Below are positions 5,899 to 38,766 of a stretch of 64,000 nt of DNA, one piece after another (the first letter of the stretch is position 1; each line of letters opens with the position of its first letter). The DNA is from Sinohyriopsis cumingii (lineage: Eukaryota > Mollusca > Bivalvia > Unionida > Unionidae): contig CM068831.1 in the NCBI GenBank assembly GCA_028554795.2, positions 34,163,644 through 34,227,643 on the forward strand, read 5' to 3'. The notes beneath the pieces are model-generated. The model was not told the DNA's origin. It saw only the letters and a program-made list of their open reading frames with translations, and searched no databases. Both the position numbers and the translations under genes were made by a program.

Positions 5899-6070
5899 AG
5901 CAGCAGGGAGGGTGAACAAACTCTAATTGACTCACTCTCTATTTCAAATAATAAGCCTTCGGGAAATTGCAAAAAGAGGGTTCGAAATAAGCGTCCTTCT
6001 TGAAAATCGTAAAGACAAAGGGACTGCGGTGACTGAGTGCCGATTATGAGACTTCGCCCTCCCTGCTGAT
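5899..6070 (+). repeat. Pol1 left terminal inverted repeat (172 bp)
   Basis: Matches the reverse complement of 38590-38761 with scattered differences. The repeat is itself bracketed by an inverted copy of its tip: AGCAGCAGGGAGG at the outer edge and CCTCCCTGCTGAT at the inner edge (6058-6070), so the whole arm could fold into a long hairpin. Confidence 0.9.
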
Positions 6071-6093
6071 ATTAATTAAAAATTGCTATATCA

Positions 6094-6490
6094 AATAATG
6101 GTTTATCCGGAATCTTATACTGCCCGGTTAGCTCGAGAGCGACTGGAATCAATCACGAAATTTCTCCCCGTGAGAGATTCTTTCAGAAAATAACCTACAA
6201 GAACGGCAAGTAGCACAAGTTGAATTCGCTACAGGTACATAACAGTTATTTAAACCTGTTACTGAAGCTACTGAAAGAGTTGCAACGGCTACTGAGGAGG
6301 GTCTTCTTCCAGTATTAAAACGAACAGAACAAATTTTACAGGAGCTTCCAATTAAAATAGCCGCCACACAACCTCAACCATTTTCTCAACTTGAAGATGA
6401 AGGCGAAGAAACACCTGAAGGTGCTATTGGTGAAACCCCCCCACCAAAAAAAAAAAAAAAAAGAAAAAGAGAAATTGATGTTAGGTAAAA
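6094..6490 (+). pseudogene. Pol1 homologue of the Pol2 172-aa virion-block protein
   Basis: Pieces in two frames match the Pol2 gene at 34795-35313. A segment with ARLARERLESITKFLPV matches its N-terminal third, and after a frameshift a VTEATERVA...EEGLLPVLKR segment matches its middle. The C-terminal tail is Glu/Pro-rich and ends in a poly-Lys tract (poly-A at 6450-6466), not the Gln-Ala repeats seen in Pol2. At least one frameshift and one stop interrupt it. It is the first gene inside the TIR, as in Pol2. Function is unknown; the family recurs next to Polinton capsid genes. Confidence 0.6.
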
Positions 6491-6531
6491 ATTTACTAAT
6501 AAAAAGCATACAAGAAACTCAAAAATATAAA

Positions 6532-7213
6532 ATGAAAACTAGAGAGGATAAAGCCAAGTTTGGTGAGTTTGCTGCCGAACATTTTCCTTTCAGAGATCAA
6601 TTTTTAAAACCTGAATACGTTAAAAAAGTAAATAGTGACGCATGGAACGATTAGGTGTTTAAAAAGAAATCAAAATGTTGATTATATAGACAAAGAAAAT
6701 ATTGATTATAAAATTTATTCAGCAGGAGCAGAAAGTCATAATAAAACACTAAAAGGACAAAGAGATCATGAAAAAGAACAACAACAAAAACAAATGGAAA
6801 GGAAACAAAAACGAGCACAACAACAAAAACGACAACAAGAACGACAACAAAAAACTTCCCATCAAGAGCCTTCCTATCAACTTCCTCCTCCATTGCAACA
6901 AACGGAAAAAGAATCAACTCAAGACTTTTATAAACTATATGGAGAACCTACAGAAGAAGAAGTTTACGATCAGCCTGACATTGGTGATACCGGTAGTGGT
7001 TTGGGAAGTGGCCTTGTTACTTGTCCTAACAATATCCTCAATGACGTGCAACGTCTAGAAGTTCTCATAGGAGGAAAACGTGCTAGTAATAATTCTTCAG
7101 AAACAATTAATGAAGCGGCTGATATTTGTCAGCGATTATTTACATGTGGTATCATGGATTTCGACGTTTACCAGTAACTTATTGATGAACTCGTTGATGA
7201 TTGCAGTGACTAG
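6532..7213 (+). pseudogene. Pol1 homologue of the Pol2 271-aa virion-block protein
   Basis: The C-terminal ~60 codons (about 7010-7200) match the Pol2 gene at 33944-34759 closely, including the core VLIGGKRASNN and a following NEAADICQRLF. The N-terminal part (DKAKFGEFAAEHFPF) also aligns. The centre is a Gln/Lys-rich low-complexity region. In-frame stops lie near 6651 and near 7176, where Pol2 has a Glu codon. A GSGLGSGL stretch precedes the conserved C-terminus, echoing the GSG motifs of other virion proteins here. Confidence 0.65.
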
Positions 7214-7250
7214 TTCTCACAATGATTAGATAAATGGCAAGTAAAATAAG

Positions 7251-7695
7251 ATGATCATACACAATAGTCAGCGTGGACCTGTAATGGTCAGAGCAATAAA
7301 CTCACGATTACCAACCTACACAGCGATTTACGGAGATGGACTTGGTGATGTTGTTCTGGGTTTATTCAGAAGGGTAGCTCCAAAAGTAGCACCTGTTGCA
7401 AAACAATTATCAATGAAGGCTATTGATGTTGAATAGCAAAAAAGCTTCTAGTGCAATCGTCAATGTTACTGGTAAGGCGTTCTCGGCAATCAAAGAAAGA
7501 CTAGCACGATTAATACGACGAAACTCACAGCCAGTAAAATTACCAAGCACTGAAGTTATGCCTGCAAATGTCAGTAGAATAATAAATCAAGCTGCACATC
7601 AGAAACTGGCATTGCTAGCAGATCAAGGACTCGGTGAAGCAGGGAATAACATTTCAAGGCTAATATCAGGAAGCGGAGTTTTCCGAAGGATGTAA
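7251..7695 (+). pseudogene. Pol1 pVI-like basic/amphipathic virion protein
   Basis: Aligns over its length with Pol2 33369-33923. The N-terminal basic segment (INSRLPTYTAIYGDGLGD), the amphipathic FRRVAPKVAPVAKQL region and the QPVKLP motif are all shared. A frameshift near 7430 splits it into two frames. It ends in GSGVFRRM, where Pol2 ends in GSGLRFR, and lacks the 9-residue repeats found in Pol2. The role as an adenovirus pVI-like internal virion protein is an inference from composition and position. Confidence 0.6.
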
Positions 7696-7728
7696 TCCTC
7701 GTGTTAGACGAAAATAATTATAATAAAA

Positions 7729-9119
7729 ATGCTTAAGCGCATATCCGACACAGCATTTGACATGGAAGGAACTTTCCTCAAGGATGAAAGTGTACCTGAT
7801 TATCAATTTTATTCCTATGATGCACGACTACCAAATCAGCAGGGGAGAATTGAGTTACAAGTCCATGATACAAGAAGATACTTTTTACCTGCTGAGGCTT
7901 TCATTGAGGCAGAAGGTGAAATTATAAAAAACGATAATACTGAATTTATAGCCGGGATTGAAATTGATTTTGTCAACAACGGCATCATATCAATGTTTAA
8001 TAGCGCTACTTATTTGATTGATGGAAAAAAAATTGAGACAATTCAGAAAGATGTTGACGTTGCTACATCAATAATAGGACTGGAAAGATACTCTGATGAT
8101 TATACAAGATCAGCAGGTCCCACAATGATGTTTGTAAAAGATAATTCTAACGACCATGAAAGAGACCAGTATACTAAAAGACGACCAACAAAAAAAAAAA
8201 AGAAAACCACTGCCGCTGCAGATGACGCATATGTGGAGTCGATAATTATTGAAGCTAAATCAAATCACAACTTAGGATCTGCAACAAGTCGATCAATGTT
8301 GGAAGGGCTTCGTAGAAATTTTTCATGCGCAATTCCACTATCACATATTTTTGGATTTTGCACAAATGTCAGAATGGTTATCTTTGGAGCTAAACACACA
8401 GTTGCTCTTGTGCGAAAGTCTTCCGAGAACGACGTGCTCTGGATACCTACTAGTGATCCTGGTAAAGTAGTACTAACAAAACTTTCGTTATGTATACCAG
8501 TAATGACTTCAATCATCGCAGAAGAACAGCGACTATTATCTTTTGAGGACATAAGTGGTTATTCTCTGTTGTCCTGGTTGACAACAACCACAGATAGTAT
8601 GCAAACTGATATTAACGGTCAATTTACATGGCATATAGCATCACAACAAAGTCTTTCTGCACGACGATTTATATTTATTGTTTTTCAGAATTATGATCGA
8701 GCAAACTCACAGGAACGTAGTCATATGATATTTGACAAACTGGGTGTTACTGAGTTTTCTTTGTGGATACATGGATAACAAGAACCAACAGAAAACATAA
8801 TACTCTGTTTTGAAAACAATCATATAGCGCGTGTATACATCGGTTAATGATGTTTATGGAACGTGATCAAAATGTAGATACTGGTTTACAAACATCACAG
8901 TTACATTTTAGAAATGGATATCCGATCTATTAATTTACGCTGGAGAATCTTGATTTATCCAAACAATATGTCGTAGATATACACTTCAGAGCCAGAGTGA
9001 ATACAGGTGGTGGTGTTCATTACAGAGCAATCGCGGTTATACTCAGTGACAAAGCAATGTTACTTGAAGGTGGTAGTGGTCGAATGGGAGTCGTTGATGA
9101 CCCAGTGGAAAATCTTTAA
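7729..9119 (+). pseudogene. Pol1 major capsid protein, broken
   Basis: Matches the Pol2 460-aa capsid gene almost end to end, for example YFLPAEAFIEAEGEI, VNNGIISMFNSATYLIDG, RYSDDYTRSAGPTMMF and SHIFGFC. The first 349 codons are open to 8778, where a CAA codon in Pol2 corresponds to TAA here. After further frameshifts the C-terminal part resumes at about 8846-9119 (ERDQNVDTGL ... AIAVILSD). An insertion of Lys codons near 8190-8210 (poly-A) is not in Pol2. The parent would have been a double jelly-roll hexon-type capsid subunit, by family. Confidence 0.75.
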
Positions 9120-9154
9120 TCCACGTTATTTAGAAACACGAGTATTTTATAAAA

Positions 9155-9529
9155 ATGTCTTACCATCAAGCAAGTGTCAGTCTGACTCCTGGTCAGATCA
9201 AGAAATTACAATCCGCATCAGCAAACAAATGTGGGACCACAATAACGCTAAAGCACAATCAAATCACAGGCGGTGAAAATAAACTGTCGTTGACAACGCG
9301 CCAACTTAAGCATCTCAATGACGCCCAACAATCCAAGATTGGAATACAACTTAAACTTTCCGCCGCAGCCATCAGCAACATGGTTAAAACCGGAGGAATA
9401 TTCCCACTTCTCGCGGCAATACCAGCATTGATAGCTCCTGCTGCCCCAGCTATTGCAAAGGCGGCAGCGTTAGGTGCTATTGGAACGGCCGCTGAAATGG
9501 CATCAAAAAAGAAACAGGAAAGGGATTAA
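9155..9529 (+). CDS. Pol1 pX/mu-like virion protein (open but shortened)
   Basis: A 124-codon ORF matching Pol2 31431-31937: the SVSLTPGQIKKLQSA start, the GGENKLSL motif and MVKTGGIFPLL are shared, followed by an Ala-rich hydrophobic stretch. Pol2 continues with two GSGL motifs. Here the frame stops after KKKQERD, and the downstream sequence (about 9519-9545) still shows a GLKLPGTYLR-like remnant in another frame, so the end is probably lost by frameshift. The family is common in Polintons between the capsid and protease genes. Confidence 0.6.
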   Translation: MSYHQASVSLTPGQIKKLQSASANKCGTTITLKHNQITGGENKLSLTTRQLKHLNDAQQSKIGIQLKLSAAAISNMVKTGGIFPLLAAIPALIAPAAPAIAKAAALGAIGTAAEMASKKKQERD

Positions 9530-9545
9530 AACTTCCGGGAACTTA

Positions 9546-9634
9546 TCTAAGAACAGTACCAATAAAACAAAACAGCGCTGAAACCGGTATTATTAATCTC
9601 GATAACAGCACTGGACCTGGAATTTATTCAGGTT
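9546..9634 (+). pseudogene. Pol1 adenain-like protease remnant
   Basis: Only the N-terminal segment survives: SAETGIINLDNSTGPG aligns with the Pol2 protease just before its catalytic His motif. The His, Asp and Cys motifs are missing because a deletion joins this stub directly to the start of the fibre gene. Confidence 0.6.
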
Positions 9635-10437
9635 GACCGAGATGAAGTTGTTGTTTTTCATGACCGATATGGCAGGCTAAAAACCAGCAACATCAAATGG
9701 AATGATATAGTTCGACGAGTACTCGGTGTGGTCACGGATAACATCCCTGTGTTTATTGACGGGGATAGAAGCAGAGACTCAAATATATCGGTTACAACCA
9801 TCAGAGATGAAATTGCAATAGTGTGAAGAATAGCGGTGACACAATGACAGGTGAACTCAGCATGAGCGGAAATAAAATAGTAGTGCTTGGAGAACCAACA
9901 TCCGACGAAGACTCGCAACAAATAATATGTGGACATTAACTACAGCTCCGTAGATAATACATTATCCACGTTACGGGCCGAGTATGACGTTCATGTGAGT
10001 ATGTTCACGAATATTCGTAGAAATTTTAGAAAAACTGATGCAATCGCAGATGTTTTCTTTGGTACTCCGTTGACCGCTGGCATAAAACTCTCTGATATCA
10101 AGACGAACATTGATACAATAAGAAAACACTCGAAGACATCGTAAGTCGAATTGCTGATATCGTTAACAAAATTAGTCTGATTAAAATGCCTCATAAACGG
10201 ATCATCAACAACGTATACACAATGTCATCCGGGTTGGCAACATGTTCACAGCAAAATAATACTATCAAACATACCGCCGAGGTCACTGGTGTGTACAGGT
10301 TGTCTGTGCTCAGTGCTGCAAAATTTAGTATATACACCACATATCCCTGGCGGCGTAAGTTTTCCGGGGTTGTGTCTGTTGTGTTAAATAGCGGAAGCGA
10401 AGCGACATTTATACTGGAAGCAGCTGATAAACATTAA
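9635..10437 (+). pseudogene. Pol1 fibre (coiled-coil shaft and head), broken
   Basis: The first part (VDRDEVVVFHDRYGRLKTSN) matches the N-terminus of the Pol2 fibre shaft. The middle is short, with only a few coiled-coil heptads left (about 9930-10180). The last part (10186-10437, including EVTGVYRLSV) matches the Pol2 C-terminal head. The coiled-coil frame around 10120-10185 reads straight into the head frame, which shows that shaft and head belong to one gene. Several stops and frameshifts interrupt it. Confidence 0.6.
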
Positions 10438-11363
10438 CCGGAACATCTTACTGGTGGTGTCTGGAATTTGTTGGTGAAACGCCTCAATTGGTTACTGCGT
10501 AAAATAATAATGACGTTGACAGAGTCAAGTGTTCAGAAATATAGATATGATCAAGTACGTGAATGGCAATCAGCGTTAAAAACCATCACTGACAAATATA
10601 CAGTGAAAGTAAAAAAATACCGAAGACGTTCAGTTGCCATTGGTGTTGTAGTTTATTCAGTGTCCACGTTAGTTGCGTCACCGGAGTAGTGTTATCAGCG
10701 CTGACCCCGATAAAAGCAGTGATAGCAACAATATGTGTTTCATCATCAGCAGCAATTGCAGGTGTTTTAATATTATCGCAAAAAAGTTATCCACTTGCAC
10801 GAATACAAAATTGCACGATTATGTTGCAAAATTACATACGGCAACAGCAGCATATTCTATATTATCATCGTTGATATCAACCAGACATTTATACTGGAAG
10901 CAGCTGATAAAAATTAACCGGAACAACGTACTGGTGGTGTCTGGAATTTGTTGCCGAAACGCCTCAGTTGGTTACTGCGTAAAATAATAATGACGTTGAC
11001 AAGTCAAGTGTTCAGAAATATAGATATGATCAAGTACGTGAATGGCAATCAGCGTTAAAAACCATCATTGACAAATATACAGTGAAAGTAAAAAAATACC
11101 GAAGACGTGCAGTTGCCATTGGTGTTGTAGTTTATTCAGTGTCCACGTTAGTTGCTTCCACCGGGGTAGTGTTATCAACGCTGACCCCGATAAAAGCAGT
11201 GATAGCAACAATATGTGTTTCATCATCAGCAGCAATTGCAGATGTTTGAATATTATCGCAAAAAAGTTATCCACTTGCACGAATACAAAATTGCACGATT
11301 ATGTTGTAAAATTACGTACGGCAACAACAGCATATACTATATTATCATCGTTGATATCAACCA
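10404..11363 (+). repeat. 480-bp tandem duplication inside Pol1
   Basis: 10404-10883 and 10884-11363 are near-identical direct repeats with an offset of 480 bp. The junction falls at GACATTTATACTGG, which continues the end of the fibre head in copy 1 and follows the middle of the membrane-protein gene in copy 2. The copies differ by scattered substitutions and a 2-bp deletion. Confidence 0.9.
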
Positions 11364-11554
11364 GCCTCGGCGACACAACAATATCAAATTTCGAATTTAC
11401 CAACATGGCTAAGATATACAATGAAGTAATTGATTCAGAAAACCGCCATTTGAAAGAAAATGAAAATAATAATGGCCGCACTACTTTTGCAGATAGCCGC
11501 GAACACAGCGCTGATGAAAACAACAATGATATCGACAAGCTCAACAAACCCTGA
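10510..11554 (+). pseudogene. Pol1 two-helix membrane protein, duplicated and broken
   Basis: Homologue of Pol2 29002-29532. Copy 1 (from ATG 10510) encodes the N-terminal basic helix (YRYDQVREWQSALKTI) and the start of the first hydrophobic segment. Copy 2 repeats this with a 2-bp deletion, and its continuation at 11213-11554 encodes the C-terminal half (IIAKKLSTCTNTKLHDY ... DIDKLNKP). The 480-bp tandem duplication and frameshifts destroy the original gene. Confidence 0.6.
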
Positions 11555-12959
11555 ATTCAGTATTAATTGCCAACTGCGATTTCAGCAAAATAAATCGCTC
11601 TTGCACAGTTGCGAGTATACAACAGTTGGCCAAATATAAGATCAAAATCAGTCGGTAGATTACAACCAAATAATTCGTTGGTGTTTGCAAATAAAATAAA
11701 CCCGATGGAACCCCCGACTGGACAGTTGTTGTAATACCGACCGGACGTTATCAAATCGAACAGATCCATGATAAAGAATATCACCGGGGAGGAATCCAAA
11801 ATAAAAATAACAGTTCATGAACCAACACTATCATCTGCAATCGATATAAACTCTACCATTACGCCGTTGATATATATCAATCATCGATCAGAAAAGTGTT
11901 AGGCTGGCATGATGTTGCACCGCCACCACCACCACCTGAACCAAAAGGGTCTGATTTCACGACGGATAATGCTTCATACTCAGAAGTAGAAAGATTTCTT
12001 GGAACCTATGAAGGTTGGTTTGGACCATATGTGACGGGACTTATAATGGTTAAAATTATACATGTTATTTTTAGGTCTTTCAAAGATGAGCTGATTTGGA
12101 TCCATCAACCACAAAATGTAGAATTTGTTGAGGAGAGACTCATAGGTTTCGTCAGTGAAATTAATGAAATAAAGTACAATGCTTTACTAAGGAGTTTGCG
12201 TCATAGGTTTACAGAATACTACACTGATATAAGAACAGATAAAAAAGACATTATTAAACATATTGAGACATCAAATCAAATTATGGCCGATCTTAAATAT
12301 AGAAATCAAATTTGCACACAAGCGGTAATTAACTCAGAAGGTAAGCTTAAGCAACAATTTCTTAACAAATACAAGATAACAAAAGCTGATCTACGGACAT
12401 TTAAATTTCCTGGGTATAACCCAGACGAGTATAAAAAAAATCACTCAAAGATATCATTGATAAGTTTTTCCCTAAAATACTCGCCGAGCAGAAAAGAATA
12501 ATAATACCACCGGCAACTATTCTCGGACACAACAATGACCAAACGGAGACAGGCTGTCATGTATCTCCGGAAATCGTAAACATATCCTCGGTGATCACGA
12601 TCAATCTTGTGTGTGATGTAATTCACAGAAGCTATCAGACAAACACAGAAATATCCACACAGGCACAGCAAGGATACAGCTTATATACTTTTACCCCGCA
12701 AGTCCCACCTGAATCTCTCATTGTGCAAGAGCTAGTCAATCCCGTCTATCGACAGTGTCATAATCCACTGTTATCAAGAATAAATTACAGACTAACTGAC
12801 CAGTCCGGGAACTTGATTGCCCATCGTAGGAAAACGCGAAATCTAAATTTATTTGTGAAATCGTCAAAATCTACGATTCCTCGATGTGTTTTATCAAGGG
12901 AACAACACAAAAAAATAATTCTCCTCCTTGACAGTCAAGGTGGATATTTTTTTTACTGA
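11526..12959 (+). pseudogene. Pol1 penton-like minor capsid protein, broken
   Basis: Homologue of Pol2 27540-29087. The start (SSTNPEFSIN), the VYNSWPNI-type segment (about 11620, frameshifted), the VDIYQSSIR...LGW segment (about 11865) and the C-terminal jelly-roll-like part (QAQQGYSLYTF, RINYRLTDQSGNL) all align. The central insert region is open at 11896-12501. At least three frameshifts are needed to follow the homology. Confidence 0.7.
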
Positions 12960-13129
12960 CAAATGGACTTATACTGGATCAGACTGATTTCTTAATTCTG
13001 ATAGTGTAATAGGTAGTCAAAATCGTGCAAAACGGTCAGATTTTTTTTAATACTGAAAATTGGTCAGTGGTGAAAGACAAGGGAACAGTACACAAAAATA
13101 ATAATTCTCCTCCTTGACAGTCATTTATT

Positions 13130-13485
13130 TTCACGAATGAGTCTAACTTTCATTTCTATTATTTGACATAATCTTTCTTAGTTGCCTCACACGAGTATTA
13201 TTGTCTTCTTTGCTTCATATTCACGAGATAATTCTGATCTAATTGTTTTGATGGCACTAGAAATAGAGAGACAAATTATTTTCCTTCACTTTCTTTTATT
13301 GTAGCTAGCGATTGAAACATCGCCGTCTGAATTTTTTTACGAATCTGTACTCGGATGGTAAAGTATTCCTTCTTCCTTCCATTCTTTCTTGCAGTGTTTC
13401 AAAATCAGAAATATTTTTTTCAGGATTTAATTCATCAGATAAATTTACAGCAGAAATGACATCATTGATATTTTTGTAATTCATT
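13130..13485 (-). pseudogene. Pol1 homologue of the Pol2 small gene at 27042
   Basis: The first 60 codons from ATG 13485 align with the Pol2 protein, ending in the shared LPSEYRFVKK motif. A stop follows, and a further AKK-type tail can be followed in other frames. Function unknown. Confidence 0.55.
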
Positions 13486-13499
13486 ATGCAGTATATGTA

Positions 13500-14905
13500 C
13501 ATATATTTAAAACAAAAATATTTTTAATCCCATGTAAATACCTAGGGTGCCCATATAACATCCTAGCAAGTCCAGAGGGGTGTTTAGTTTTACACCGAAG
13601 ACAACACAATCCCATATGAGCCTCTAAGGTGCCCATATAACATCATACCAGGCTCATGGGCACAGTAAAAACAACCCCCAATGTGAGCCTTTCACATGTC
13701 AAACAACAGTCTAGAAGACTCAAGAGGGCATGTTTTCGAGGACGTCACAACACGTAAATCTTAATTAAGGACGGCATAATTTCCTCATATTGAACTCCCA
13801 GGGTTACACCGCATCTTAGCGAGTCCAGAAGGATACAGTAAACATTAATTAAGGACGGCACAGCATATAAACCTTAATTAACTTAATTCTAAGGAGGACG
13901 GCACGATAAACATAGGAGTATATTTACAGTATTTACGGTAAGGTATTTACAGTACGGATGGCACAATCCCCCATCAAACCTCTAGAATGTCATATAACAT
14001 TCTAGTAGGTTTAAGAAGATATGTTTACACTATATGCAGGTGTTTACAAATATTTACATTAAAGATGGCGCAACACATGTATTTACTCTATTTACAAGTA
14101 TTTACAGTAAGGACGTCACAACACATGTATTTACACTATTTACAGGTATTTACACTATTTACAGTAAGGACGGCACAGATGATGGTCACGGTGTCATTTT
14201 CTACGCTCAACAGATTTGCACACCCTCCCCAAATTCAACCCCTAGAGAGCGCAAAAAGGTGTCCGCCACGTGTTGACATGGCGGGAATATGCGTTTATTT
14301 GTCGAGTTTCGAAAACCCCAATAAAGAAAACGGGTCCTATAATATATAAGCTGGACTGATACTTGGAAATTCAAAGATAGCTCACGCGATAGGCGCGGCT
14401 TTTTGTTGTCTATATTCTTAATTTTTCTTAATTAAATCGAAGAAAAATTTTAGATGAAAAAGAAAACCGGACGGATTCAGTAAAATATATATATTGTCTG
14501 TGGAAAAAATGTATTATTTATCCCAATAATCAATTACACACCTCCCCGTACTGACAGTTCTTGATAAAATATCTACGGGAAGTAATCGGAGATAACCGCT
14601 AGGTAGACCGGTAGTTATTTTACTTCCGTGTGATGTCGACCAGTTGCCACAAAAATATTTCTTGCAGGTATTCTGAAAGGACAGAGAACATATAAAGATA
14701 GGAAAAAATGATAATTTACCTTTTAATCTATTTCAGCCATCATGTAAATTTAGAAACTGTAAGCAGCTCTTTAATTTGGTGCAATGTGTATACAACTATA
14801 ACGATAATGAAACTAGGATGCGGTTTAATCAGTACAGGAAATGAGGATAACTCTGTGAACCGCGTTACATATCCTCGATAGAGTTGTCTCCGTTCATTGC
14901 CTGTA
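13500..14905. other. Foreign ~1.4-kb insert in Pol1 with degenerate repeats
   Basis: The neighbouring genes of Pol2 are only 25 bp apart at the matching place, so this interval is an insertion relative to Pol2. It contains an array of degenerate short repeats (13540-14180): at least eight variants of AAGGACGGCACA, several CATATAACAT boxes, and TATTTACA runs. One box is a palindrome around CATATAACATTCTAG (13985-14005). Further right are imperfect inverted repeats (14578-14635 and 14838-14895). A TATA-like stretch lies at 14338-14348. No protein is recognisable and no clear terminal repeats were found. Confidence 0.55.
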
Positions 14906-14908
14906 TCC

Positions 14909-15420
14909 CTAATAATAATGGAAAATGATTTTTTGTTTATATTTGTTTGAAAGATCAGATTTGGTTATATTTTCTTCGACTTTTCGTACTGAAGGCATGC
15001 AGATATCAAAATACGTTGCATCAGTATTCATTGATTAAAAAATTCTCTCTTCGCCGGTCTATATATTTAAAGATTGAACCGCCTTAGGAATCTTTCTATT
15101 TTCCACATTCCTTCTACGTGCAGAATTTTCGCTAGGTGTGATAGTTTGAATATTCTGTAAAGCATTATCGAGCTTGTCCCTGTTGATATGATCGATCACA
15201 AGACCGTCTTTGATATCCCCTTGAAAAACCTCGAATATAAATCTGTGATTGTGATGACTCTTTTTCCCAACAGTAAATCTACGATAAACAGCATTATCAA
15301 TTACACCAACTGTTTTTTTTCCGCTGACAGTGGTATACTACACCATCACGAGATGCTTTATAATTTTTAATGATGGGACGTTGAACGAATTATTTTTGCT
15401 CCATTTATACATAAGATTAT
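14909..15420 (-). pseudogene. Pol1 NUMOD/HNH endonuclease, broken
   Basis: Matches Pol2 26464-27016. The HNH core is well preserved: HRFIFEVFQGD, then LVIDHINRDKLDNA and a TPSENS motif. A NUMOD1-like C-terminal helix-turn-helix follows (YFDICMPSVRKV). Frameshifts near 15395 and a stop near 15058 break it. Confidence 0.65.
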
Positions 15421-15730: not shown

Positions 15731-15775
15731 CGTATATATAATATTTTGTATTTAAATACTTGTCTGAAATATAAT

Positions 15776-29532: not shown

Positions 29533-29547
29533 TTATTAGTTATTTAT

Positions 29548-31046: not shown

Positions 31047-31377
31047 GATATTTATCTACGGCGTATTCAAATACAATTTTGTGATACGGACCGGATGATT
31101 TTGAAATTGCATCGAGGACGTTAATTGATTCAGGGCCGCATATCGGTGGATCCGCTAATGTCTGCGTTGGAAGTGTCGAATACCAAATCGGAAGATTTAG
31201 TTTTGACACATAGCTGATAAATTCATTTGGCGGTGCTAATCCATAAGAGTCAAAATAAACGACTTCGCGAGGATTAATCGCGTATGCAACCCAGTGCGTA
31301 CCAGGGCCGGTATTTTTATCGAGATTTATTATTCCTGTCTCGGTAGGGTTTGGTTTTTCTGGTAGTTGATCTCGCAT
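31039..31377 (-). CDS. Adenain-like (C5) cysteine protease
   Basis: 112 codons from the first ATG (31377). The family motif FFRGVFMRD..P extends upstream of this ATG in the same frame, so initiation at an upstream non-ATG codon (TTG 31428) is possible. Catalytic motifs are in adenain order: His in GTHWVAY, acidic residue in YFDSYG, Cys in PPICGPES, with a Gln in TQT ahead of it. It would process virion precursors, probably at the GSG-type sites of neighbouring proteins. It overlaps the fibre start by 8 bp. The domain is shorter than adenovirus protease. Confidence 0.82.
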   Translation of the reverse strand: MRDQLPEKPNPTETGIINLDKNTGPGTHWVAYAINPREVVYFDSYGLAPPNEFISYVSKLNLPIWYSTLPTQTLADPPICGPESINVLDAISKSSGPYHKIVFEYAVDKYHG

Positions 31378-31430
31378 AAATACGCCTCTGAAAAATTTTA
31401 TTTTTTTATTCTTTGCTTCGCTGATCAAAT

Positions 31431-31937
31431 CTAAATTTGAGGCTGGTAGACTCGTCTTAGGCCGGATCCGTATGGGGGGCGTCTTAGATAAAGGCCGGAT
31501 CCTTTTTGTTGTTTTTGCAACATTTTCGCGATTAAGGGAGAGAGGGCGGGAAGTAACCCTCCCTTTTTTTTACTGTATCTCCCTCCAACCACCTTCTCTC
31601 CTAATTTGGAACCTATGCCTGTTAGCGCGCCTAATCCTACTGTTTTTGCAATCATCGGAAGAGCCATTTTTATCAGAGGAAGAAAAGGAAAAATTCCGCC
31701 CGTTTTGATCATATCTCTGATGGCGCCTATAGAGAGATTCAGATGAACGCCGGAATTCGCTGATTTGGCTCTGGTAAATCTTTCACGCTGACTTCTAGTT
31801 AGCGATAGTTTGTTAGGCCCACCGTGAATCTGATCGTTTTTCAGGGTTAAATTCAAACCGCTTCGCCTTGCTGTTGCTGTTTGGAGTTTTTTTATCTGAC
31901 CCGGGGTCAGAGTTACGCTGACGTGTTCGTATGGCAT
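31431..31937 (-). CDS. pX/mu-like minor virion protein
   Basis: 168 codons. The start HVSVTLTPGQIKKLQTA and GGPNKLSL are shared with Pol1. Then come MIKTGGIFPFLPLI, a glycine-rich hydrophobic stretch, a basic region, and two C-terminal GSGL motifs (KGSGLYLRR, YGSGLRRVY). Proteins of this layout sit between capsid and protease genes in many Polintons and have been compared with adenovirus pX (mu) core protein. The GSG motifs look like protease sites, which is an inference. Confidence 0.65.
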   Translation of the reverse strand: MPYEHVSVTLTPGQIKKLQTATARRSGLNLTLKNDQIHGGPNKLSLTRSQRERFTRAKSANSGVHLNLSIGAIRDMIKTGGIFPFLPLIKMALPMIAKTVGLGALTGIGSKLGEKVVGGRYSKKKGGLLPALSPLIAKMLQKQQKGSGLYLRRPPYGSGLRRVYQPQI

Positions 31938-31970
31938 ATTAATAATCGCTTAATCTAAATTTGGAATTTG

Positions 31971-33353
31971 TCACATGTTCTCGACAGGAGCATCGATGAC
32001 TCTCATTCTGCCGCTAATGCCTTCCAAGATCATTGTTCTATCACTGAGGATTACCGCGATGGCTCTTGCTGCTCCGGCTGTGTTAATTCTAGCTTTGAAA
32101 TGGATATCGACAACGGATTGTTTTACCAAATCGAGATGCTCCAGGGAAAAGTAATAGATAGGATAGCGAGTATTAAAATCTAGCTGTGATATTTGCAATC
32201 CGGTATCGATATTTTGATCGCGGCCCATGAAACTTAGCAATCGATGATACGCGCGGGCAGTCGAATAGTTGTCAAAATCGATGGCTATTTCCTCGGATGG
32301 TTCTTGCTGGCCGTTTATTCTCAGTGAAACGTTTGTTGCTGCAAATTTGTCGAATATCATATGACTGTGTTCTTGATCGTATCTGTTTGCGGCTTGAAGA
32401 GCAACAAAGATGTGTCTAGGTGCCGAAACACCTTGTTGTGACGCAATTCGCCAGGTAAATATTCCGTTGATATTAACATCGCAGGAGTCGGTCATCGTTG
32501 TCAACCAGGACATGACGGATTTTCCGCCTTGATTCATGAATGATAATAATTTTTCTTCCTCAAGTATCGATGGGGTTATCGCTGGCATCCACAAGGTAAA
32601 TTTTTCAAGGACAACTTTACCGACATTAGCGGCATCCGCACTAGCTTCTCGCCAGATGGCTTTGTTACTGCCAGCAGCGTCTCGAACGAAAGTTATCGTG
32701 TGTTTTGTTCCGTAAATAACTTTTCGGAAATGCCTACAAAATCCAAAAATGTGAGATAGCGGAATTGCACAGGAAAATCTTAGTTCATTCTTAGTCAACA
32801 TAGCTCTTCTCGTGGCAAATCCAAGGTTGTAATGATCATTGATGTTAATTATCATGCTTTCGACGTCAGCGTCAGCATTATTAGCGTTATTTCTCGGTCT
32901 CCTGACGATATACTGGACATGTTCAGCGTGATCAGAATTATCTTTGGCGAACATCATACTAGGACCGGCCGACCTGGTAAAATCATCCGAGTATCTCGCT
33001 AGGCCTATAATCGTCGTTGCTATATCAACGTTATCTGTAATTGATTCGATCTCTCTTCCATCGATCATGTAAGTGGCGCTCTTGAATAAAGCCATGATGC
33101 CGTTATTGACAAATCCGACTTTAAAATGTTCGCCAAAGTTGGTATCGTTTGTCCTAATAATTCTCCCAACAACCTCGATATATGCCTCAGATGGAAGAAA
33201 ATATCTTGTTGTATCGTGGACTTGAATTTCCAAGCGATTATTTGTATTTGGGTCAACTGCATCGTACGAGAAATACTGGAAATCTCGCACGGATGTATCC
33301 CTGCCTACAGGCTCGTCCATGTCAAACACTTCATTTGACACTTGTGCGAACAT
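31971..33353 (-). CDS. Major capsid protein (double jelly-roll, hexon-type)
   Basis: 460 codons from ATG 33353, open throughout. It follows the pattern I know for this Polinton capsid family: beta-rich N-terminus with IQVHDTTRYFLPSEAYIEV, FVNNGIMALFKSATYMIDG, the PLSHIFGFCRH segment, and C-terminal KQSVVDIHFKARIN and VILSDR. Double jelly-roll structure is family knowledge and is not visible directly from sequence. As the capsid shell subunit it implies that Pol2 could form virions. It sits centrally in the - strand block, 16 bp downstream of the pVI-like gene. The Pol1 copy is broken. Confidence 0.78.
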   Translation of the reverse strand: MFAQVSNEVFDMDEPVGRDTSVRDFQYFSYDAVDPNTNNRLEIQVHDTTRYFLPSEAYIEVVGRIIRTNDTNFGEHFKVGFVNNGIMALFKSATYMIDGREIESITDNVDIATTIIGLARYSDDFTRSAGPSMMFAKDNSDHAEHVQYIVRRPRNNANNADADVESMIININDHYNLGFATRRAMLTKNELRFSCAIPLSHIFGFCRHFRKVIYGTKHTITFVRDAAGSNKAIWREASADAANVGKVVLEKFTLWMPAITPSILEEEKLLSFMNQGGKSVMSWLTTMTDSCDVNINGIFTWRIASQQGVSAPRHIFVALQAANRYDQEHSHMIFDKFAATNVSLRINGQQEPSEEIAIDFDNYSTARAYHRLLSFMGRDQNIDTGLQISQLDFNTRYPIYYFSLEHLDLVKQSVVDIHFKARINTAGAARAIAVILSDRTMILEGISGRMRVIDAPVENM

Positions 33354-33368
33354 TTATTATTAAGAATA

Positions 33369-33923
33369 TCATCTAAAACGAAGACCGCTGCCTGAAATGA
33401 AGCTTGTATTTGCAACCTCATTTGCGAGATTTGTCTTAGCAACTTTATTTGCTAGATTTGTCTTAGCAACTTCCCTTGCTAGATTTGTGTTAGCAACTTC
33501 ATTTGCGAGATTTGTCTTAGTAACTTCCTGCGCTAGATTTTTCTTAGCAACTTCCTGCGCTAGATCGTTTATTTTTTTATTTGCCGCGTCGTTTATGGCT
33601 TTACTGATTTCGGGTGGCATTTCTCTGGTGATAGGCAATTTGACGGGTTGTTTTTTGCGCATTAAATTTAATATTTTACTTTTGACAACATTGAAGCCCT
33701 TGCTGGCCAAATTACCGATACCAGAAACGGCAGTCTCGCCGATCTTTCCTATTGCTTTTAACCCGAGCTGTTTGATCATGGGTCCAATTTTAGGTATTAT
33801 TCGCGTAAAAAGACTTCCAATAATATCGCCGAATCCATTACCGTGTATATATCTATATACGGGCAATCGAGAGTTTACTACGCGGACCTGTCTGGGTCTA
33901 CGCAGATATTTGTGAACAATCAT
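33369..33923 (-). CDS. pVI-like basic virion protein with 9-residue repeats
   Basis: 184 codons. The Arg-rich N-terminus (YLRRPRQVRVVNSRLPVY) is followed by a glycine/hydrophobic amphipathic region (FTRIIPKIGPMIKQLGLKAI), the KQPVKLPITREMPP motif, and six tandem 9-residue repeats of the type LANEVAKTN encoded by 27-bp DNA repeats (33412-33575). It ends in SGSGLRFR. Basic and amphipathic features plus a terminal GSG site recall adenovirus pVI. That comparison rests on layout only. Confidence 0.55.
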   Translation of the reverse strand: MIVHKYLRRPRQVRVVNSRLPVYRYIHGNGFGDIIGSLFTRIIPKIGPMIKQLGLKAIGKIGETAVSGIGNLASKGFNVVKSKILNLMRKKQPVKLPITREMPPEISKAINDAANKKINDLAQEVAKKNLAQEVTKTNLANEVANTNLAREVAKTNLANKVAKTNLANEVANTSFISGSGLRFR

Positions 33924-33943
33924 GTTATTTCAATTGTGTTGTT

Positions 33944-34759
33944 TTAATCGATGAGTTCATCGACAAGTTCCTTGTAAATGTGAGAGTCGATGACACCACC
34001 GCGGAATAATCGCTGACAAATATCCGAGGCTTCGTTGATTACTTCGCGAGAGTTATTTCCAGCTCGTTTTCCTCCGATTAATATCTCGAGGCGAGATACA
34101 TCGTTGACAACACTATCAGGGCAAACGGTATATCCGCTTCCTGTCTTTGGTTTTTGTGTTGATGGTTCGTTGAACCACTCCGTTAACACGTCCTTATCTT
34201 CCTTTTCTTTTTCTTTTTGTTTTACTTTTTCCATAAATTTAAAATATTCGTCATCACGTTTGTAAGGTGGTTTTTCACTAGCAAAATATATCCAGTCGAT
34301 ATATTTGCTTTTTTCAAGAGGTTTTCCACGAACACTGGGGTTAAAATATTTATCCCTATCATCATAATCCGCGGCAATATCTACTAAATTTTCTCCCCTT
34401 GCGATTTGTTCATGCACATCACGGGTAAAAACATTTCCGATAGCTTTATGAAGATTTTCATAGTCGGACTTCGCAGTTTCTCTCTCTTGTTGAGTTATTT
34501 CTTGTGATTTATCCGAAGTTTTTTTTTCCTCCTTCCTTGCATCTGCGACATCCAGAAATTTACTATAGAGGGCACTGGTTTTTCTCGCCTCAGACAAATT
34601 AAATCTACCTCGAAATAAATTATTATACCAAACATCCCGCGATTTAATTTTTTTAAATCCGTCTTCAGTTAAAAACGCCTTTCTATTGTCAAAGGAATCT
34701 TCAGCAAAAATAGCAAATAATCTAATATCATCTCCAAATACCTCAACTTGTTTTTCCAT
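33944..34759 (-). CDS. Unknown virion-block protein, 271 aa
   Basis: From ATG 34759. A charged, mostly helical N-terminal two-thirds (FDNRKAFLTEDGFKKIKSRD, a Lys/Glu-rich coil near 180-195) leads to a GSG motif (PKTGSGYTV). A conserved C-terminal helical domain follows (VSRLEILIGGKRAGNN, NEASDICQRLF, YKELVDELI). This C-terminal domain recurs upstream of capsid genes in other Polinton-like elements. Function is unknown. Pol1 has the same order. Confidence 0.6.
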   Translation of the reverse strand: MEKQVEVFGDDIRLFAIFAEDSFDNRKAFLTEDGFKKIKSRDVWYNNLFRGRFNLSEARKTSALYSKFLDVADARKEEKKTSDKSQEITQQERETAKSDYENLHKAIGNVFTRDVHEQIARGENLVDIAADYDDRDKYFNPSVRGKPLEKSKYIDWIYFASEKPPYKRDDEYFKFMEKVKQKEKEKEDKDVLTEWFNEPSTQKPKTGSGYTVCPDSVVNDVSRLEILIGGKRAGNNSREVINEASDICQRLFRGGVIDSHIYKELVDELID

Positions 34760-34794
34760 TGTTTCCCAACCACTCTTGGTAAATTTTTCTATTA

Positions 34795-35313
34795 TTATAT
34801 CTCGAGGTTCTTTTTTTTAACACCCTCCTTCCTTTCTTCTTCTTCTTCCTCTTGAGCTTGTTCTTCTTCTTGCGCTTGTTCTTGTTCTTGTTGTGCTTGT
34901 GCTTGTGCTTGTGCTTGTGCTTGTTGTGCTTGTGTTTGCGCTTGTGCTTGTGCTTGTGCTTGTGCTCGTGCTTGTGCTTGTGCTCGTGCTTGTGCTCGTG
35001 TTTGTGTTTGTACTATTCGCTCCGGCAATAATCGAGTGTGTTGCTCGATATCTCTCGTCATAGGAATAAGACCGCGCTTCCTAAGTTCCTTATCTTCCTT
35101 TTTATCGCCGTATGCGACTTGCTCGATTGCTCCAGTGACTGGACTCAACAACTTTGACGATATCTCGGTAATTCCATACTGAGAATCTTCGTAATCACGA
35201 ACTTTTTTCTTAAATAATTGTTTTACCGGGATAAGTTTCTTCACTGCCGCTAATTGCTCTCGCGCTAATCTGGCAGAATGAGGCTCTCCAACTGTGCTAG
35301 CTTTCGGACTCAT
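34795..35313 (-). CDS. Unknown virion-block protein with Gln-Ala repeats, 172 aa
   Basis: First gene inside the right TIR, from ATG 35313, and probably the first of a long late-type transcription unit. The N-terminal ~100 residues (HSARLAREQLAAVKKLIPVK, LSPVTGAIEQVAYG, RLLPERIV) are shared with Pol1. The rest is a (Gln-Ala)n tract encoded by a GCTTGT-type repeat on the + strand (34860-35010), then Glu-rich. Function unknown. Confidence 0.6.
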   Translation of the reverse strand: MSPKASTVGEPHSARLAREQLAAVKKLIPVKQLFKKKVRDYEDSQYGITEISSKLLSPVTGAIEQVAYGDKKEDKELRKRGLIPMTRDIEQHTRLLPERIVQTQTRAQARAQAQARAQAQAQAQAQTQAQQAQAQAQAQAQQEQEQAQEEEQAQEEEEEERKEGVKKKNLEI

Positions 35314-35387
35314 ATTATTTTCAACTATATTGTTTTAATGCGAGGTAAAATTAGGATCAGCAGCCAAATTCCATTTCACAAACTTCA

Positions 35388-35586
35388 AAATTCTCCCCCC
35401 CCCCCTAAAAATCGTTGTCTGAAATCACTGAATTTGTACACAAAAAATTGCAGTCGGGAGTGAATTTACGCAAATTAATTTTCGTAGGAAGGCTTATTTT
35501 TGAAATCTGAGGCTTCTACGGAGAAAGTTCTCGTAGGAAGCTTTATTTGGTCTGGAACGTCTGGTCTGTAGAACTTCCCTGCTGCT
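35388..35586 (-). repeat. Pol2 right terminal inverted repeat
   Basis: Complement of 20791-20990. It contains the C-run (35396-35404) matching the inner G-run of the left repeat, and ends CTTCCCTGCTGCT directly before TTAGGGCC. Confidence 0.9.
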
Positions 35587-35630
35587 TTAGGGCCTTTTCA
35601 AGTCAGTAATGATTTCACTGTTGACCAGTG
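35587..35630 (-). mobile_element. DDE transposon copy B, right 36 bp plus 8-bp target duplication
   Basis: 35587-35594 is the second copy of TTAGGGCC. 35595-35630 corresponds to 5433-5468 of copy A (CAAGTCAGTAATGATTTC...CCAGTG, first base offset by the duplication). TAA follows at 35631-35633, and then the Pol1 helicase reading frame resumes. Confidence 0.92.
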
Positions 35631-36334
35631 TAATGGCAAGTAGAAAGATAGTTCATGATACATTTCAACGGAGATTATTTGAAAAGCATAAAGAAAAATT
35701 CCCAGCGTTACCTGCACCATTGTGTTATAGACCAGCTGATACACGACGACATAATATCAACATTGATATATCAGGACCCTTGACAGAGTCAAGGAAACAG
35801 AATCTCGTATTAAATGATGCTGTCGCAGTTGATGTCAGTTTTGTCGAGGTTGCGCTGAGTATGGATAAATCCCCGTGGACGTTAGGATACGCAAAACCAA
35901 TTTACTCATCTCAAGAGGTAACCATCTCTGTTACTCGAGTTTGGATTGTAGATGATCATGTCGAATGGTCAAACTTAGTTTATTTGGCAATGTCTCGAGA
36001 AAGAAGAATATCTCAGCTGCGGAGAATTGTCAATGACGCTACAGAAACCATCAATGATGTTATTGACAGCGATATAGTAAAAAAAAAATTGCCGGTTATA
36101 AACAAAGTGACAAAAAATAATCGAGAAATTGAGATTGATGTTGAATTTATCAACGCGCTGAAGCGGCAGCAGAATAATCACTGTGCGAGTTGCTGTTGTG
36201 CACTGTTATGGCAGTACTCGAATAATAATCCAAGACAATTTACCGTAGATAGAAAATATAGTAGTCGCGATCATTCACAAGATAATGTGATGCTGACCTG
36301 TCTCGAGTGTAATCGATGTAACGGCGCTAGTTAA
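35631..36334 (+). pseudogene. Pol1 polymerase-helicase fusion, 3' part with HNH-like tail
   Basis: Continues the helicase cut at 18426. ASRKIVHD and FPALPAPLCYRPADTR align with Pol2, and motif VI YLAMSRERR is present. Motif V has decayed (IYSSQEVT, with the Gly lost). Beyond the point where Pol2 stops, about 85 more residues follow and end in an HNH-like zinc motif: NNHCASC, then FTVDRKYSSRDHSQDNVML and TCLECNRCNG. The stop at 36332-36334 overlaps the integrase gene end by 8 bp. Confidence 0.78.
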
Positions 36335-37266
36335 GTGATCGCGGTGGTAATTGCGTGTCTTCGGGAATTACTTGTAAATGTTCACGTGTAAATGCACGTC
36401 GAGGAGCAGTTGAATCTAGTCTGTAGGTTGCAGGTCTACCCGTTGATCTTACCACACTGGAAATATTGTGTGTTGTAATACTCCAGACAGGAGCAGTTGC
36501 TCTTTTTTACCACCTTCATGTTCACCAGGTTCATATAAATATCTTACAGTGACAGTACTCAGCACTGGCTGCGCTGAAAAATCACGCCGTTGTACTGGTA
36601 TAAGCGCGTTTGTGATCGCGTTAATATGTTTCATGTTGGTTGTTCGATTAATTTCATTATTTAACGCAGCTGTCACACTTGGGAATCTTGCAACCCATTC
36701 GCGAGATCTAGTATCTTGACTGATTTCCTTCGCGTATTGATATCCAAAATAACCGCTCAGTAAGTGTTCGATTAAATCTCTCAACAATTGCCTGATTGCA
36801 GTGAATTGCAGTATGATAGACATTATGTTACTCCATCAGCGATGATACTGCGCCCTGAAATTCTTTGCCAGGATCAACCTGTAGCAGCTGTGGCCATCGT
36901 AGACCACCTCGTTGATAAATTCGTTTAAACGCAGAAGCTACTTCAACAGCGGTCTTTTTTTTAAGGCTCTGCTTCTTTATACCTACTTTCAACATCAGCG
37001 ACAGTTAACGCGTATTTGTATGTTACTCGACGTCTAGAATCATGTGGTAAAAATAAAATATCAGCCTGATGAACTTCATTAGGGACGCTGACATCAAAAT
37101 GCGCGTACTGTATTGTTTTTGGCGGCGGTAGATAAATTTGCCATATTGGTTGTCGGGATAACCATTTTTCAGCAGTAGAACGTTCGACACCTGCTGCTTC
37201 AGCGGGTTTGCTAATCGCTGATCTACCTTTCCAGTATCATCTTGGGGAATAATAAATTGACTCCAT
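36327..37266 (-). pseudogene. Pol1 integrase, broken
   Basis: From ATG 37266. The N-terminal helix-turn-helix and QIYLPPP region, VHQADILFLPHD (first catalytic Asp) and the C-terminal region (VTVRYLYEPGEHEGG, STGRPATYRLDS) match Pol2. The core between about 36790 and 36980 is frameshifted, and the region of the second Asp and the Glu is disrupted. Confidence 0.78.
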
Positions 37267-37282
37267 TATGATAATAATCGGT

Positions 37283-37790
37283 TGATTAATTACCATTCAC
37301 CAATACAAGCTTACCCTTCATTGCAGATCTCACCAACCAATAAACTAATGATTTTTGAAAGATTTATTTTTTATGGAATTTAGTGCGTGAATTAATTTCA
37401 CATCTGCGATATGCCGCTGCTGAAGATCTTTAATTTTATAAGCTACATCATGAGCCTGACACGTGTTATCGATAGCATTTATTGGATACTCACCTGGTCA
37501 GGGTTGGTCTTGGTTATCAAGTCTGATATCAAGTCGGGTTCCAGGGCCACAGTGGTTATATCCTGGGAGGTGTGTTTCTCCTGCGTACATAGCCCACGGA
37601 GTTAATGGTCATCATGAGCCTGACACGTGTTATCGATAGCATTTATTGGATACTCACCTGGTCAGGGTTGGTCTTGGTTATCAAGTCTGATATCAAGTCG
37701 GGTTCCAGGGCCACAGTGATTATATCCTGGGAGGTGTGTTTCTCCTGCGTACATAGCCCACGGAGTTGCTTAACTGGGCAGCAATATCAC
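37283..37790 (-). pseudogene. Pol1 phospholipase A2, internally duplicated
   Basis: LPGYNHCGPGTRLDIRL (calcium loop) and, frameshifted, an AIDNTC...HDVAY segment match Pol2 21872-22207. The calcium-loop half is present twice because of a 164-bp tandem duplication (37446-37609 and 37610-37773). The tail RHIADVKLIHALNSI is near 37390. Confidence 0.72.
37446..37773. repeat. 164-bp tandem duplication in Pol1
   Basis: Two direct copies starting CATCATGAGCCTGACACGTG at 37446 and 37610. They are almost identical (for example CACAGTGG against CACAGTGA), so the duplication is younger than most Pol1 decay. Confidence 0.93.
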
Positions 37791-37794
37791 CTCC

Positions 37795-37945
37795 TCCCTC
37801 TCTTTAAAACCGACTTGTCAGCGGGAATAAACTTAAATTTCTTTGTACCGCATCGTTCACACTTACCTATAACTGCTGACCTGTTATTTTTTGTTGCAAT
37901 AGTTGTTGGTGTACTTGTCGGGGTATTTCGCACAATATGAATTCA
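37795..37945 (-). pseudogene. Pol1 zinc-ribbon protein, frameshifted
   Basis: NNRSAVIGKCERCGTKKFKF matches the second half of the Pol2 zinc ribbon. The first Cys pair lies in another frame near 37937. Confidence 0.6.
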
Positions 37946-37969
37946 TATTATTTATTATAGTTCTACAAA

Positions 37970-38590
37970 ATGAATGTAATTGATTTTCAGCAAAAAAAGG
38001 CGAGAACCAGTCAAGCATCATGCTGCGCTACCAAATTCTATCCGAATGATACTAATTGGACCGTCCGGGTCTGCTAAGAAGCAACTTTTACTTAATTTGA
38101 AAATGAGATGGTTGAAATGGGATAAATTGTATTTAGTAGCACCCTCTGTAGATGATCAGCGGTGTTATGAATTGCTAAAAGACTTGAATGAAAACACAAC
38201 GTTGTTGGATCAAAAAGGTGATGGTGTTATCGAGTTTATTACTGATATCGATTTAGCGCCATCTGTAGATGACCTTGACGGGTTTATTAATAATTTAGTT
38301 GTGTACGATGATATGATGCTGGACACAGATGTGATTTATGTTACCCAGCGGTATGCACAAATCCCGAAAGTGATCAGAGGTAATTGTAATATTCTTGCTG
38401 TGTTCAAAGGAGTTGACACGCATACGTTACGAAATATCCATCAGACTTGGTACAGAGGAGATATGGACATAATTAAATTTATAAATGTATTTAGTCAGGC
38501 TCAGTCAACCCCGCGTGGATTTATAACAATAAACTTACATGACCCACGGTCACGATATCGAATCGGTCTTGATAAAAATTTAATTAATTG
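37970..38590 (+). pseudogene. Pol1 packaging ATPase, degenerate
   Basis: Close match to Pol2 21035-21685 (MRWLKWDKLYLVAPSVDDQR is identical in both). There is a frameshift in a run of seven A (37990-37996). The Walker A is changed to GPSGSAKK, losing the Lys-Thr pair. About 14-16 residues around the region after Walker B are deleted (MMLDTDVIYV). The frame runs into the TIR. Confidence 0.82.
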
Positions 38591-38761
38591 CAGCAGGGAG
38601 GGCACAGTCTTATATTCGGTACTCAGTCACCGCAATCCATTTTTTCTTTACGATATTCAAGAAGGACGTTCATTTCGAACCCTCTTTTGCGATTTCCTGA
38701 AAGTCTTATTATTTGAAATAGAGAGGGAGTCAATTAGATGTTGTTCACCCTCCCTGCTGCT
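38590..38761 (-). repeat. Pol1 right terminal inverted repeat (172 bp)
   Basis: Complement of 5899-6070. Its inner edge GCAGCAGGGAGGGC (38590-38603) is again an inverted copy of the outer tip CACCCTCCCTGCTGCT. TAACG follows at 38762. Confidence 0.9.
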
Positions 38762-38766
38762 TAACG

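What the first reader, a model, noticed from the sequence alone, without database searches (positions are those of the whole stretch)
5899..38766. Three-level nest: Polinton inside a DDE transposon inside an older, related Polinton
Each junction is exact in the sequence. Pol2 (20791-35586) is flanked by TTAGGGCC, present once in the uninterrupted transposon copy A. The transposon is flanked by TAA. Across it the Pol1 helicase frame continues (SNDLI before, ASRKIVHD after), matching the uninterrupted Pol2 gene. Pol1 itself is flanked by TAACG. The relative ages are therefore fixed, and two related Polintons can be compared gene by gene.
Basis: seen in the sequence. Interest (0 to 1): 0.9.

Follow-up and report, generated by a model that had tools for sequence, protein, structure and literature searches.

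The report
Virus-like element nested inside older relative
A young virus-like DNA element sits inside a young cut-and-paste transposon, which itself sits inside an old, broken relative of the first element, so that two waves of the same kind of genome invader can be compared in one place.

Summary
The three-level nest is real. Pol1 (5899-38761) was broken by a 2,400-bp DDE transposon (copy B, ends 18427 and 35630, TSD TAA), which holds Pol2 (20791-35586, TSD TTAGGGCC). The window's own genome supports both inner junctions: 39 other scored transposon copies are uninterrupted, and in all five Pol1 relatives with both flanks these abut with a 3-bp overlap.

Corrections. (1) Not canonical Polintons: the replication gene is a protein-primed-PolB-like palm fused to an SF1 helicase (Tlr1-like), beside rve integrase, A32 ATPase, DJR capsid, weakly matched protease and PLA2. 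(2) The transposon has a RAG1/Transib fold (CMCT, probably Chapaev3-like). (3) Nesting fixes Pol1 as oldest, but transposon plus Pol2 could have arrived as one unit.

New: of 48 Pol2-type copies 33 have 7-bp TSDs, 7 have 6, 2 have 8; Pol1-type ones fit 5 bp. Within a Pol2-type copy the TIR arms differ by 0.7%, between copies by 5.5%, and coding differences fall mostly at third codon positions, so copies diverged while replicating (inferred). Pol1-type arms differ at 7-19 of 101 bases: an older wave. The host is probably a bivalve (inferred).

The parts
5899..38761 (+). Pol1: old, broken element, interrupted by the transposon and Pol2; its genes run opposite to those of Pol2
   Evidence: TIRs 5899-6080 / 38579-38761, TSD TAACG; 37 in-frame stops over the aligned pieces
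5899..6080 (+). Pol1 left TIR
38579..38761 (-). Pol1 right TIR
3069..5468 (-). Transposon copy A, uninterrupted, TSD TAA; 565-aa transposase ORF 3286-4983 (-)
   Evidence: 39 other scored full-length copies in the genome
18427..20790 (-). Transposon copy B, larger piece; transposase ORF 18644-20341 (-) open
   Evidence: 11 mismatches in 2,368 bp to copy A; ORF
35587..35630 (-). Transposon copy B, end piece, beginning with the second TTAGGGCC
   Evidence: 48 of 48 bases identical to copy A (these 44, the TAA and one more base)
20791..35586 (-). Pol2: young element inside copy B, 36 bp (not counting the repeated 8) from its right end, TSD TTAGGGCC
   Evidence: TIR arms identical over 101 bp; TSD once in copy A
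21035..21880 (-). Pol2 A32-type packaging ATPase
   Evidence: Pfam Pox_A32 7.6e-12
21809..22207 (+). Pol2 phospholipase A2-like protein
   Evidence: Pfam Phospholip_A2_4 1.7e-13
22204..23160 (+). Pol2 rve integrase
   Evidence: Pfam rve 2e-8
23133..24770 (-). Pol2 replication protein, second part: rest of the palm with a motif C-like ATDS, then SF1 helicase
   Evidence: AAA_30 9.6e-10; phrog_325 Dda-like helicase 3e-20; relatives are single proteins; motif names recalled
24771..26114 (-). Pol2 replication protein, first part up to a motif A-like DMSACYPG; same frame as the second part, separated by one in-frame stop that 0 of 7 other copies share
   Evidence: no family hit on its own
26591..27016 (+). 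Pol2 free HNH endonuclease
   Evidence: HNH_3 2.6e-16
31039..31569 (-). Pol2 adenain/Ulp1-type protease (weak)
   Evidence: phmmer to cysteine protease S273R, PDB 6lj9, 3.6e-4; no Pfam hit
31971..33353 (-). [quoted passage not shown]
   Evidence: PF21738 5.1e-17; 78 homologues
15911..18426 (+). Pol1 replication gene, left arm up to the transposon, many stops
   Evidence: tblastn to Pol2
35631..36334 (+). Pol1 replication gene, right arm: helicase end plus a C-terminal HNH-like tail that Pol2 lacks
   Evidence: tail recognised by eye from the relatives' C-termini, no Pfam hit

Best explanation
Pol1 and Pol2 are two families of one lineage of integrating, virus-like DNA elements in an animal (probably bivalve) genome. 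The lineage carries a Tlr1-like replication protein (pPolB-like palm fused to an SF1 helicase), an rve integrase and a capsid set. Shown: Pol1 integrated long ago, leaving TAACG, and decayed. A recently bursting RAG1/Transib-fold (CMCT, probably Chapaev3-like) cut-and-paste transposon lies in its replication gene with a 3-bp duplication. Pol2 lies in that transposon copy with an 8-bp duplication. Inferred: each Pol2-type copy is made by protein-primed replication, which makes the outer TIR arms identical each round; the integrase joins the ends to the target with a 7-bp (6-8) stagger; and copies diverge in the replicating phase under selection rather than after insertion.
Against: The order of the last two insertions rests on parsimony. 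The window's Pol2 replication gene has an in-frame stop, so this copy alone may be dead. No relative was found in viral contigs. The TIR of the window's Pol2 is diverged beyond 101 bp, so the arms are not reset over their whole length. The Pol1 relatives read TAG, not TAA, at the empty site, so the window's Pol1 must have differed there by one base before the insertion. Three Pol2-type copies with both ends have no TSD. Protein priming is inferred from the palm fold of a relative modelled at mean pLDDT 68.7. Copies were chosen by likeness to the window.
Confidence: 0.85

Rival explanations
1. Composite move: Pol2 first inserted into a transposon copy elsewhere, and transposon plus Pol2 (17.2 kb) then jumped into Pol1 as one unit, like a small Teratorn.
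For: Pol2 lies between the transposon's ends and the transposase ORF is open. The final sequence would be the same. A cut-and-paste move need leave no second copy.
Against: Only the window's own locus matched the whole 400-bp junction query, and all 40 scored transposon copies are the bare 2,400 bp. This is weak: one search scored 40 of 1,874 candidates and missed copy A and nearly all of the 39 other transposon copies that one search lists, and a longer junction query did not complete. I raised the odds from 0.08 to 0.10 for that reason.
Confidence: 0.1
2. Assembly chimera: one or more junctions are artefacts of joining repeats.
For: Both families are repeated in the genome, so mis-joins are conceivable; I had no reads.
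Against: Perfect TSDs at every level and uninterrupted counterparts in copy A and in Pol1 relatives, alignment to one Pol2 frame across the insertion, and a 127.6-Mb contig.
Confidence: 0.02
3. The near-identity of TIR arms within copies reflects gene conversion between arms after insertion, not reset during replication, so the Pol2-type insertions are older than they look.
For: Inverted repeats about 15 kb apart can convert each other.
Against: 43 of the 46 copies with both ends have exact TSDs, which conversion of the arms would not repair. Pol1-type arms did not stay alike (7-19 of 101 differ).
Confidence: 0.04

Closest known systems
Tlr1-type elements and PLVs with pPolB-S1H, the 'Tlr1-like helicase' (PMC11071308, PMC4642659, PMC4028283; passages seen)
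   Same: pPolB-like palm fused to a C-terminal SF1 helicase, rve integrase (Tlr1), FtsK/A32 ATPase, DJR capsid, homing-endonuclease-like C-terminus of the fusion in Pol1 and in relatives
   Different: Probable animal host; protease (weak) and PLA2 present (the protease is absent in Tlr, PMC4028283); mostly 7-bp TSD; Pol2 lacks the C-terminal HNH-like tail
Canonical Polinton/Maverick and adintovirus
   Same: rve integrase, A32 ATPase, DJR capsid, adenain-type protease (weak), TIRs; PLA2 is also known from adintoviruses (recalled)
   Different: No separate PolB gene recognised; TSD 7 (6-8) or 5 bp instead of the 6 bp reported for intact vertebrate Mavericks (PMC8097293, passages seen)
OmPLV of Oxyrrhis marina (PMC12721341; abstract and one section read)
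   Same: SF1 helicase and pPolB in one protein
   Different: There the helicase is N-terminal and an exonuclease is present; here the order is polymerase then helicase
Teratorn (PMC10175614; passages seen)
   Same: A virus-like genome between the ends of a cut-and-paste transposon
   Different: No evidence of joint movement here; one such locus seen
Chapaev3/Transib/RAG1 group, CMCT clade (PMC12730594, PMC4411706; passages seen)
   Different: Transposase matched no Pfam model; the Chapaev3 label is inferred

Membership tests
Polinton/Maverick (canonical) | rve integrase with TIRs, A32 ATPase, DJR capsid | tested here: met
Polinton/Maverick (canonical) | pPolB with exonuclease domain, not fused to a helicase | tested here: inconclusive
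   No PolB or exonuclease family hit (Pfam); the palm is fused to a helicase. In the model of P0204 the phi29 match starts near phi29 residue 206, but a fold absent from that list is not excluded and the N-terminal part was not modelled
Polinton/Maverick (canonical) | 6-bp TSD | tested here: not met
   7 of 48 Pol2-type copies have 6 bp; 33 have 7. Pol1-type: exact 5 bp in the window and in one further insertion (L097 and L099, duplicates, an AT-rich site), 5 bp with one mismatch in 4 further insertions, none in 1, right end not found in 2
Tlr1-type pPolB-S1H element | pPolB palm fused to a C-terminal SF1 helicase | tested here: met
   Halves in one frame; four of the six relatives shown run from the motif A region through the helicase; fold of P0204
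Tlr1-type pPolB-S1H element | Exonuclease domain lost | tested here: inconclusive
   None recognised, but the N-terminal part was not modelled
Tlr1-type pPolB-S1H element | rve integrase | tested here: met
Tlr1-type pPolB-S1H element | N-terminal TP and vOTU domains | not tested
   The N-terminal part matched nothing by sequence and was not modelled
Adintovirus | OTU-bearing adintovirus PolB and integrase with C-terminal chromodomain (PMC11071296, passages) | tested here: inconclusive
   Only rve was found in the integrase and no PolB model matched; no adintovirus sequence was compared
CMCT DNA transposon | CA..TG ends and 2-5-bp TSD | tested here: met
   CACTGG..CCAGTG with TAA at A and B; 3-bp TSD in 10 of 10 other copies checked
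[quoted passage not shown] RAG1/Transib relationship | tested here: met
Chapaev3 | N-terminal Chapa zinc finger | tested here: inconclusive
   Invariant C16, C19, C60, C63, C96, C99; no Chapa profile was available
Teratorn-like composite | Virus and transposon move as one unit | tested here: inconclusive
   Arrangement present; one junction found in an incomplete search

The most novel reading that the evidence does not exclude
An animal (probably bivalve) lineage of Tlr1-like integrating viruses is, or until very recently was, replicating and reinfecting its host. Its integrase has changed its cut on the target from 5 bp (Pol1 family) to a loose 7 bp (6-8, Pol2 family), so that TSD length evolves between families whose integrases are about 64% identical. 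The outer TIR arms are reset in each replication round, so the arms date the insertion while the coding regions record the virus's own history.
Probability: 0.5. Interest if true: 0.72.

Novelty: new variant of a known kind. Interest (0 to 1): 0.58.

Why it matters
The nest and its relatives separate three clocks (TIR arms, TSDs, coding change) that are easily confounded for Polinton-like elements, and suggest that copies of one family diverged while functional rather than in the genome. The pair also sets two related integrases with different target staggers side by side in one genome, which makes the determinants of TSD length testable. In the listings and passages I saw, no paper described the pPolB-helicase type of element in an animal genome. 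Those papers were not read whole, one central paper on this fusion is not held, and most subscription papers cannot be searched here.

Tried and rejected
Relatives in viral contigs: capsid (single and alignment) and integrase gave no confirmed locus. Rfam: nothing at gathering score. Capsid profile against the PDB: nothing. First reading that the 88.8% Pol2 TIR identity contradicts a young insertion: rejected, because the outer 101 bp are identical and only the inner part is diverged. First reading of the 8-bp TSD as a 6-bp TSD plus two leftover bases: rejected after 48 copies showed 6, 7 and 8. 'Helicase gene' as a separate gene: rejected, because four of the six relatives shown carry one protein from palm to helicase to an HNH-like tail. 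That the empty site in Pol1 relatives reads TAA: I expected this, and one search shows TAG in all five. Total copy number of the Pol2 family: not obtained. Second transposon/Pol2 junction with a longer query: not obtained. NCBIfam on eight Pol2 proteins: only weak hits below the cut-offs, the integrase to IS481, IS3 and IS30 transposases and two repetitive proteins to unrelated families.
Full report
Self-comparison of the window finds two 2.4-kb transposon copies (A 3069-5468; B 18427-20790 plus 35587-35630), a Pol2 with inverted ends at 20791 and 35586, and a Pol1 with inverted ends at 5899 and 38761. Pol2 carries TTAGGGCC on both sides, which copy A has once; both transposon copies are flanked by TAA; Pol1 by TAACG. 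Copies A and B differ at 11 of 2,368 bases. An abutting repeat of 8 bp has a chance of about 0.00008 in this host sequence, one of 5 bp 0.0018.

The window lies in a 2.9-Gb genome of 1,138 contigs. Contigs C1 to C19 are of chromosome size: their printed lengths are 71.8 to 193 Mb, and for C6 a match near 151 Mb was printed. That genome gives the independent test. Forty transposon copies were scored from 98 first-look candidates; copy A is one, and the 39 others run over the full query of 2,400 bp at an identity printed as 100%. Ten of the 39 were checked at their ends: all ten have a 3-bp TSD (TAA six times, TTA, TTT, CTA, TAT once each). The site of Pol2 is thus a normal stretch of the transposon. 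Of ten Pol1-type relatives fetched, five had both flanks of the transposon within the fetched stretch. In all five, left and right flank abut with a 3-bp overlap. The three bases there read TAG in all five, where the window has TAA, so the window's Pol1 differed there by one base before the transposon came. Two of the five share their outer flanks and count as one insertion. In two others the stretch began just past the site, and in three no flank was found.

Named relatives of this protein come from Sinanodonta woodiana (54%), Elysia, Glomeromycota fungi, a catshark assembly and MAGs of Thiodiazotropha, clam symbionts (the symbiosis recalled in part). In a tree of 51 of the 119 relatives plus Pol2, Pol2 falls with Sinanodonta and six unnamed rows (support 100/99), on a branch flagged as long. 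Named capsid relatives come from Sinanodonta (54%) and Hydra (26-28%). A bivalve host is therefore my inference, not a record.

Pol1 has nearly the same genes in the same order, turned round. The integrase pieces are 59-72% identical, the capsid 52-66%, the ATPase 62%, and the larger replication pieces 45-68%; other proteins range down to 31%, and the frame at 29548-30102 has no match at 1e-3. Over 3,217 aligned codons Pol1 and Pol2 differ at 34, 25 and 55% of first, second and third positions, with 37 stops counted in Pol1 over the aligned pieces, overlapping pieces counted apart and one antisense frame left out. They were separate selected lineages before Pol1 died. At 78 capsid positions fixed in 13 relatives Pol1 departs at 20 and Pol2 at 4; at 115 near-fixed helicase positions 24 (5 of them gaps) and 7.

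Two waves. The left 2 kb of Pol1 matches 39 other scored places at 80-89% over their longest piece. Eight Pol1-type copies with both ends have arms differing at 7-19 of 101 bases; two pairs among them are duplicates, and two right ends were not found. The left 3 kb of Pol2 matches 39 other scored places at 95-97%. For 48 Pol2-type copies (the window, 38 of those 39, and nine more) I had both ends fetched. In two the right end was not really found. In the other 46 the outer 101-bp arms differ at 34 sites in all (0.7%), with 29 copies showing none. Different copies differ by 5.6 of 101 on average over 1,128 pairs. The copies therefore, as I read it, did not diverge where they now sit.

The coding differences agree. 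Against seven copies, differences by codon position are 21/24/131 in the ATPase and 41/27/175 in the integrase without stops, and 60/67/505 in a stretch of the replication gene, where none of the seven shares the window's stop and one has another. These comparisons all use the window as partner and are not independent.

Target duplications. Of 48 Pol2-type copies 33 have 7 bp, 7 have 6, 2 have 8 (one is the window), 1 has 11 in a short repeat and 5 have none, two of these being the unfound ends. Pol1-type: the window and one further insertion (an AT-rich site) have an exact 5 bp, four further insertions 5 bp with one mismatch, one none; these old sites are less sure. Intact vertebrate Mavericks are reported with 6 bp (PMC8097293, passages). 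In cryptophyte PLVs rve-INT is said typically to make 6 bp, with one 7-bp case holding a mismatch (PMC12220804, passages). The 33 7-bp targets show no strong base preference by eye.

Limits. The order of the last two insertions is not fixed by nesting. The search for a second junction of transposon and Pol2 found none, but it missed copy A and nearly all transposon copies known, so it says little; a longer query did not complete. Genome searches score only the best candidates, so counts are lower bounds and the copies are those nearest the window. Protein priming, arm reset and reinfection are inferences. The literature statement covers only the held open library, the searches named and the parts seen.

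Noticed in passing
window about 59.3-59.5 kb, minus strand: BIR (inhibitor of apoptosis) domain outside the elements, E 2e-10: host gene piece or pseudogene.
   Followed up: partly
window 44902-45177, plus strand: Weak trace of a capsid gene (best 8e-5 among 198 queries), inside a 1.3-kb stretch repeated at 43851-45175 and 45503-46819 (91%): perhaps an even older relic, perhaps chance.
   Followed up: partly
window 36028-36343 against 23144-23166: Pol1 keeps a C-terminal HNH-like tail of the replication protein, as four relatives shown do; Pol2 has almost nothing between helicase end and integrase end.
   Followed up: partly
window 10404-11364 and 37446-37767: Tandem duplications inside Pol1 (480 bp x2, 96%; 164 bp x2, 99%).
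   Followed up: no
L011 and L012: One Pol2-type copy has different outermost bases, and its two flanks are inverted copies of each other over the 20 bases printed: a variant end or an insertion in a palindrome.
   Followed up: no
Pol1 TIR, about base 161-172 from the end: The Pol1 TIR holds, near its inner end, an inverted copy of its own terminal motif.
   Followed up: no
P0214, P0217, P0243, P0258, P0288: Relatives of the polymerase-helicase protein in Glomeromycota fungi and a catshark assembly: wide or transferred host range, or contamination.
   Followed up: no
P0218, P0222, P0226, P0239: Relatives filed under bacterial Thiodiazotropha MAGs (clam symbionts) are probably host DNA.
   Followed up: no
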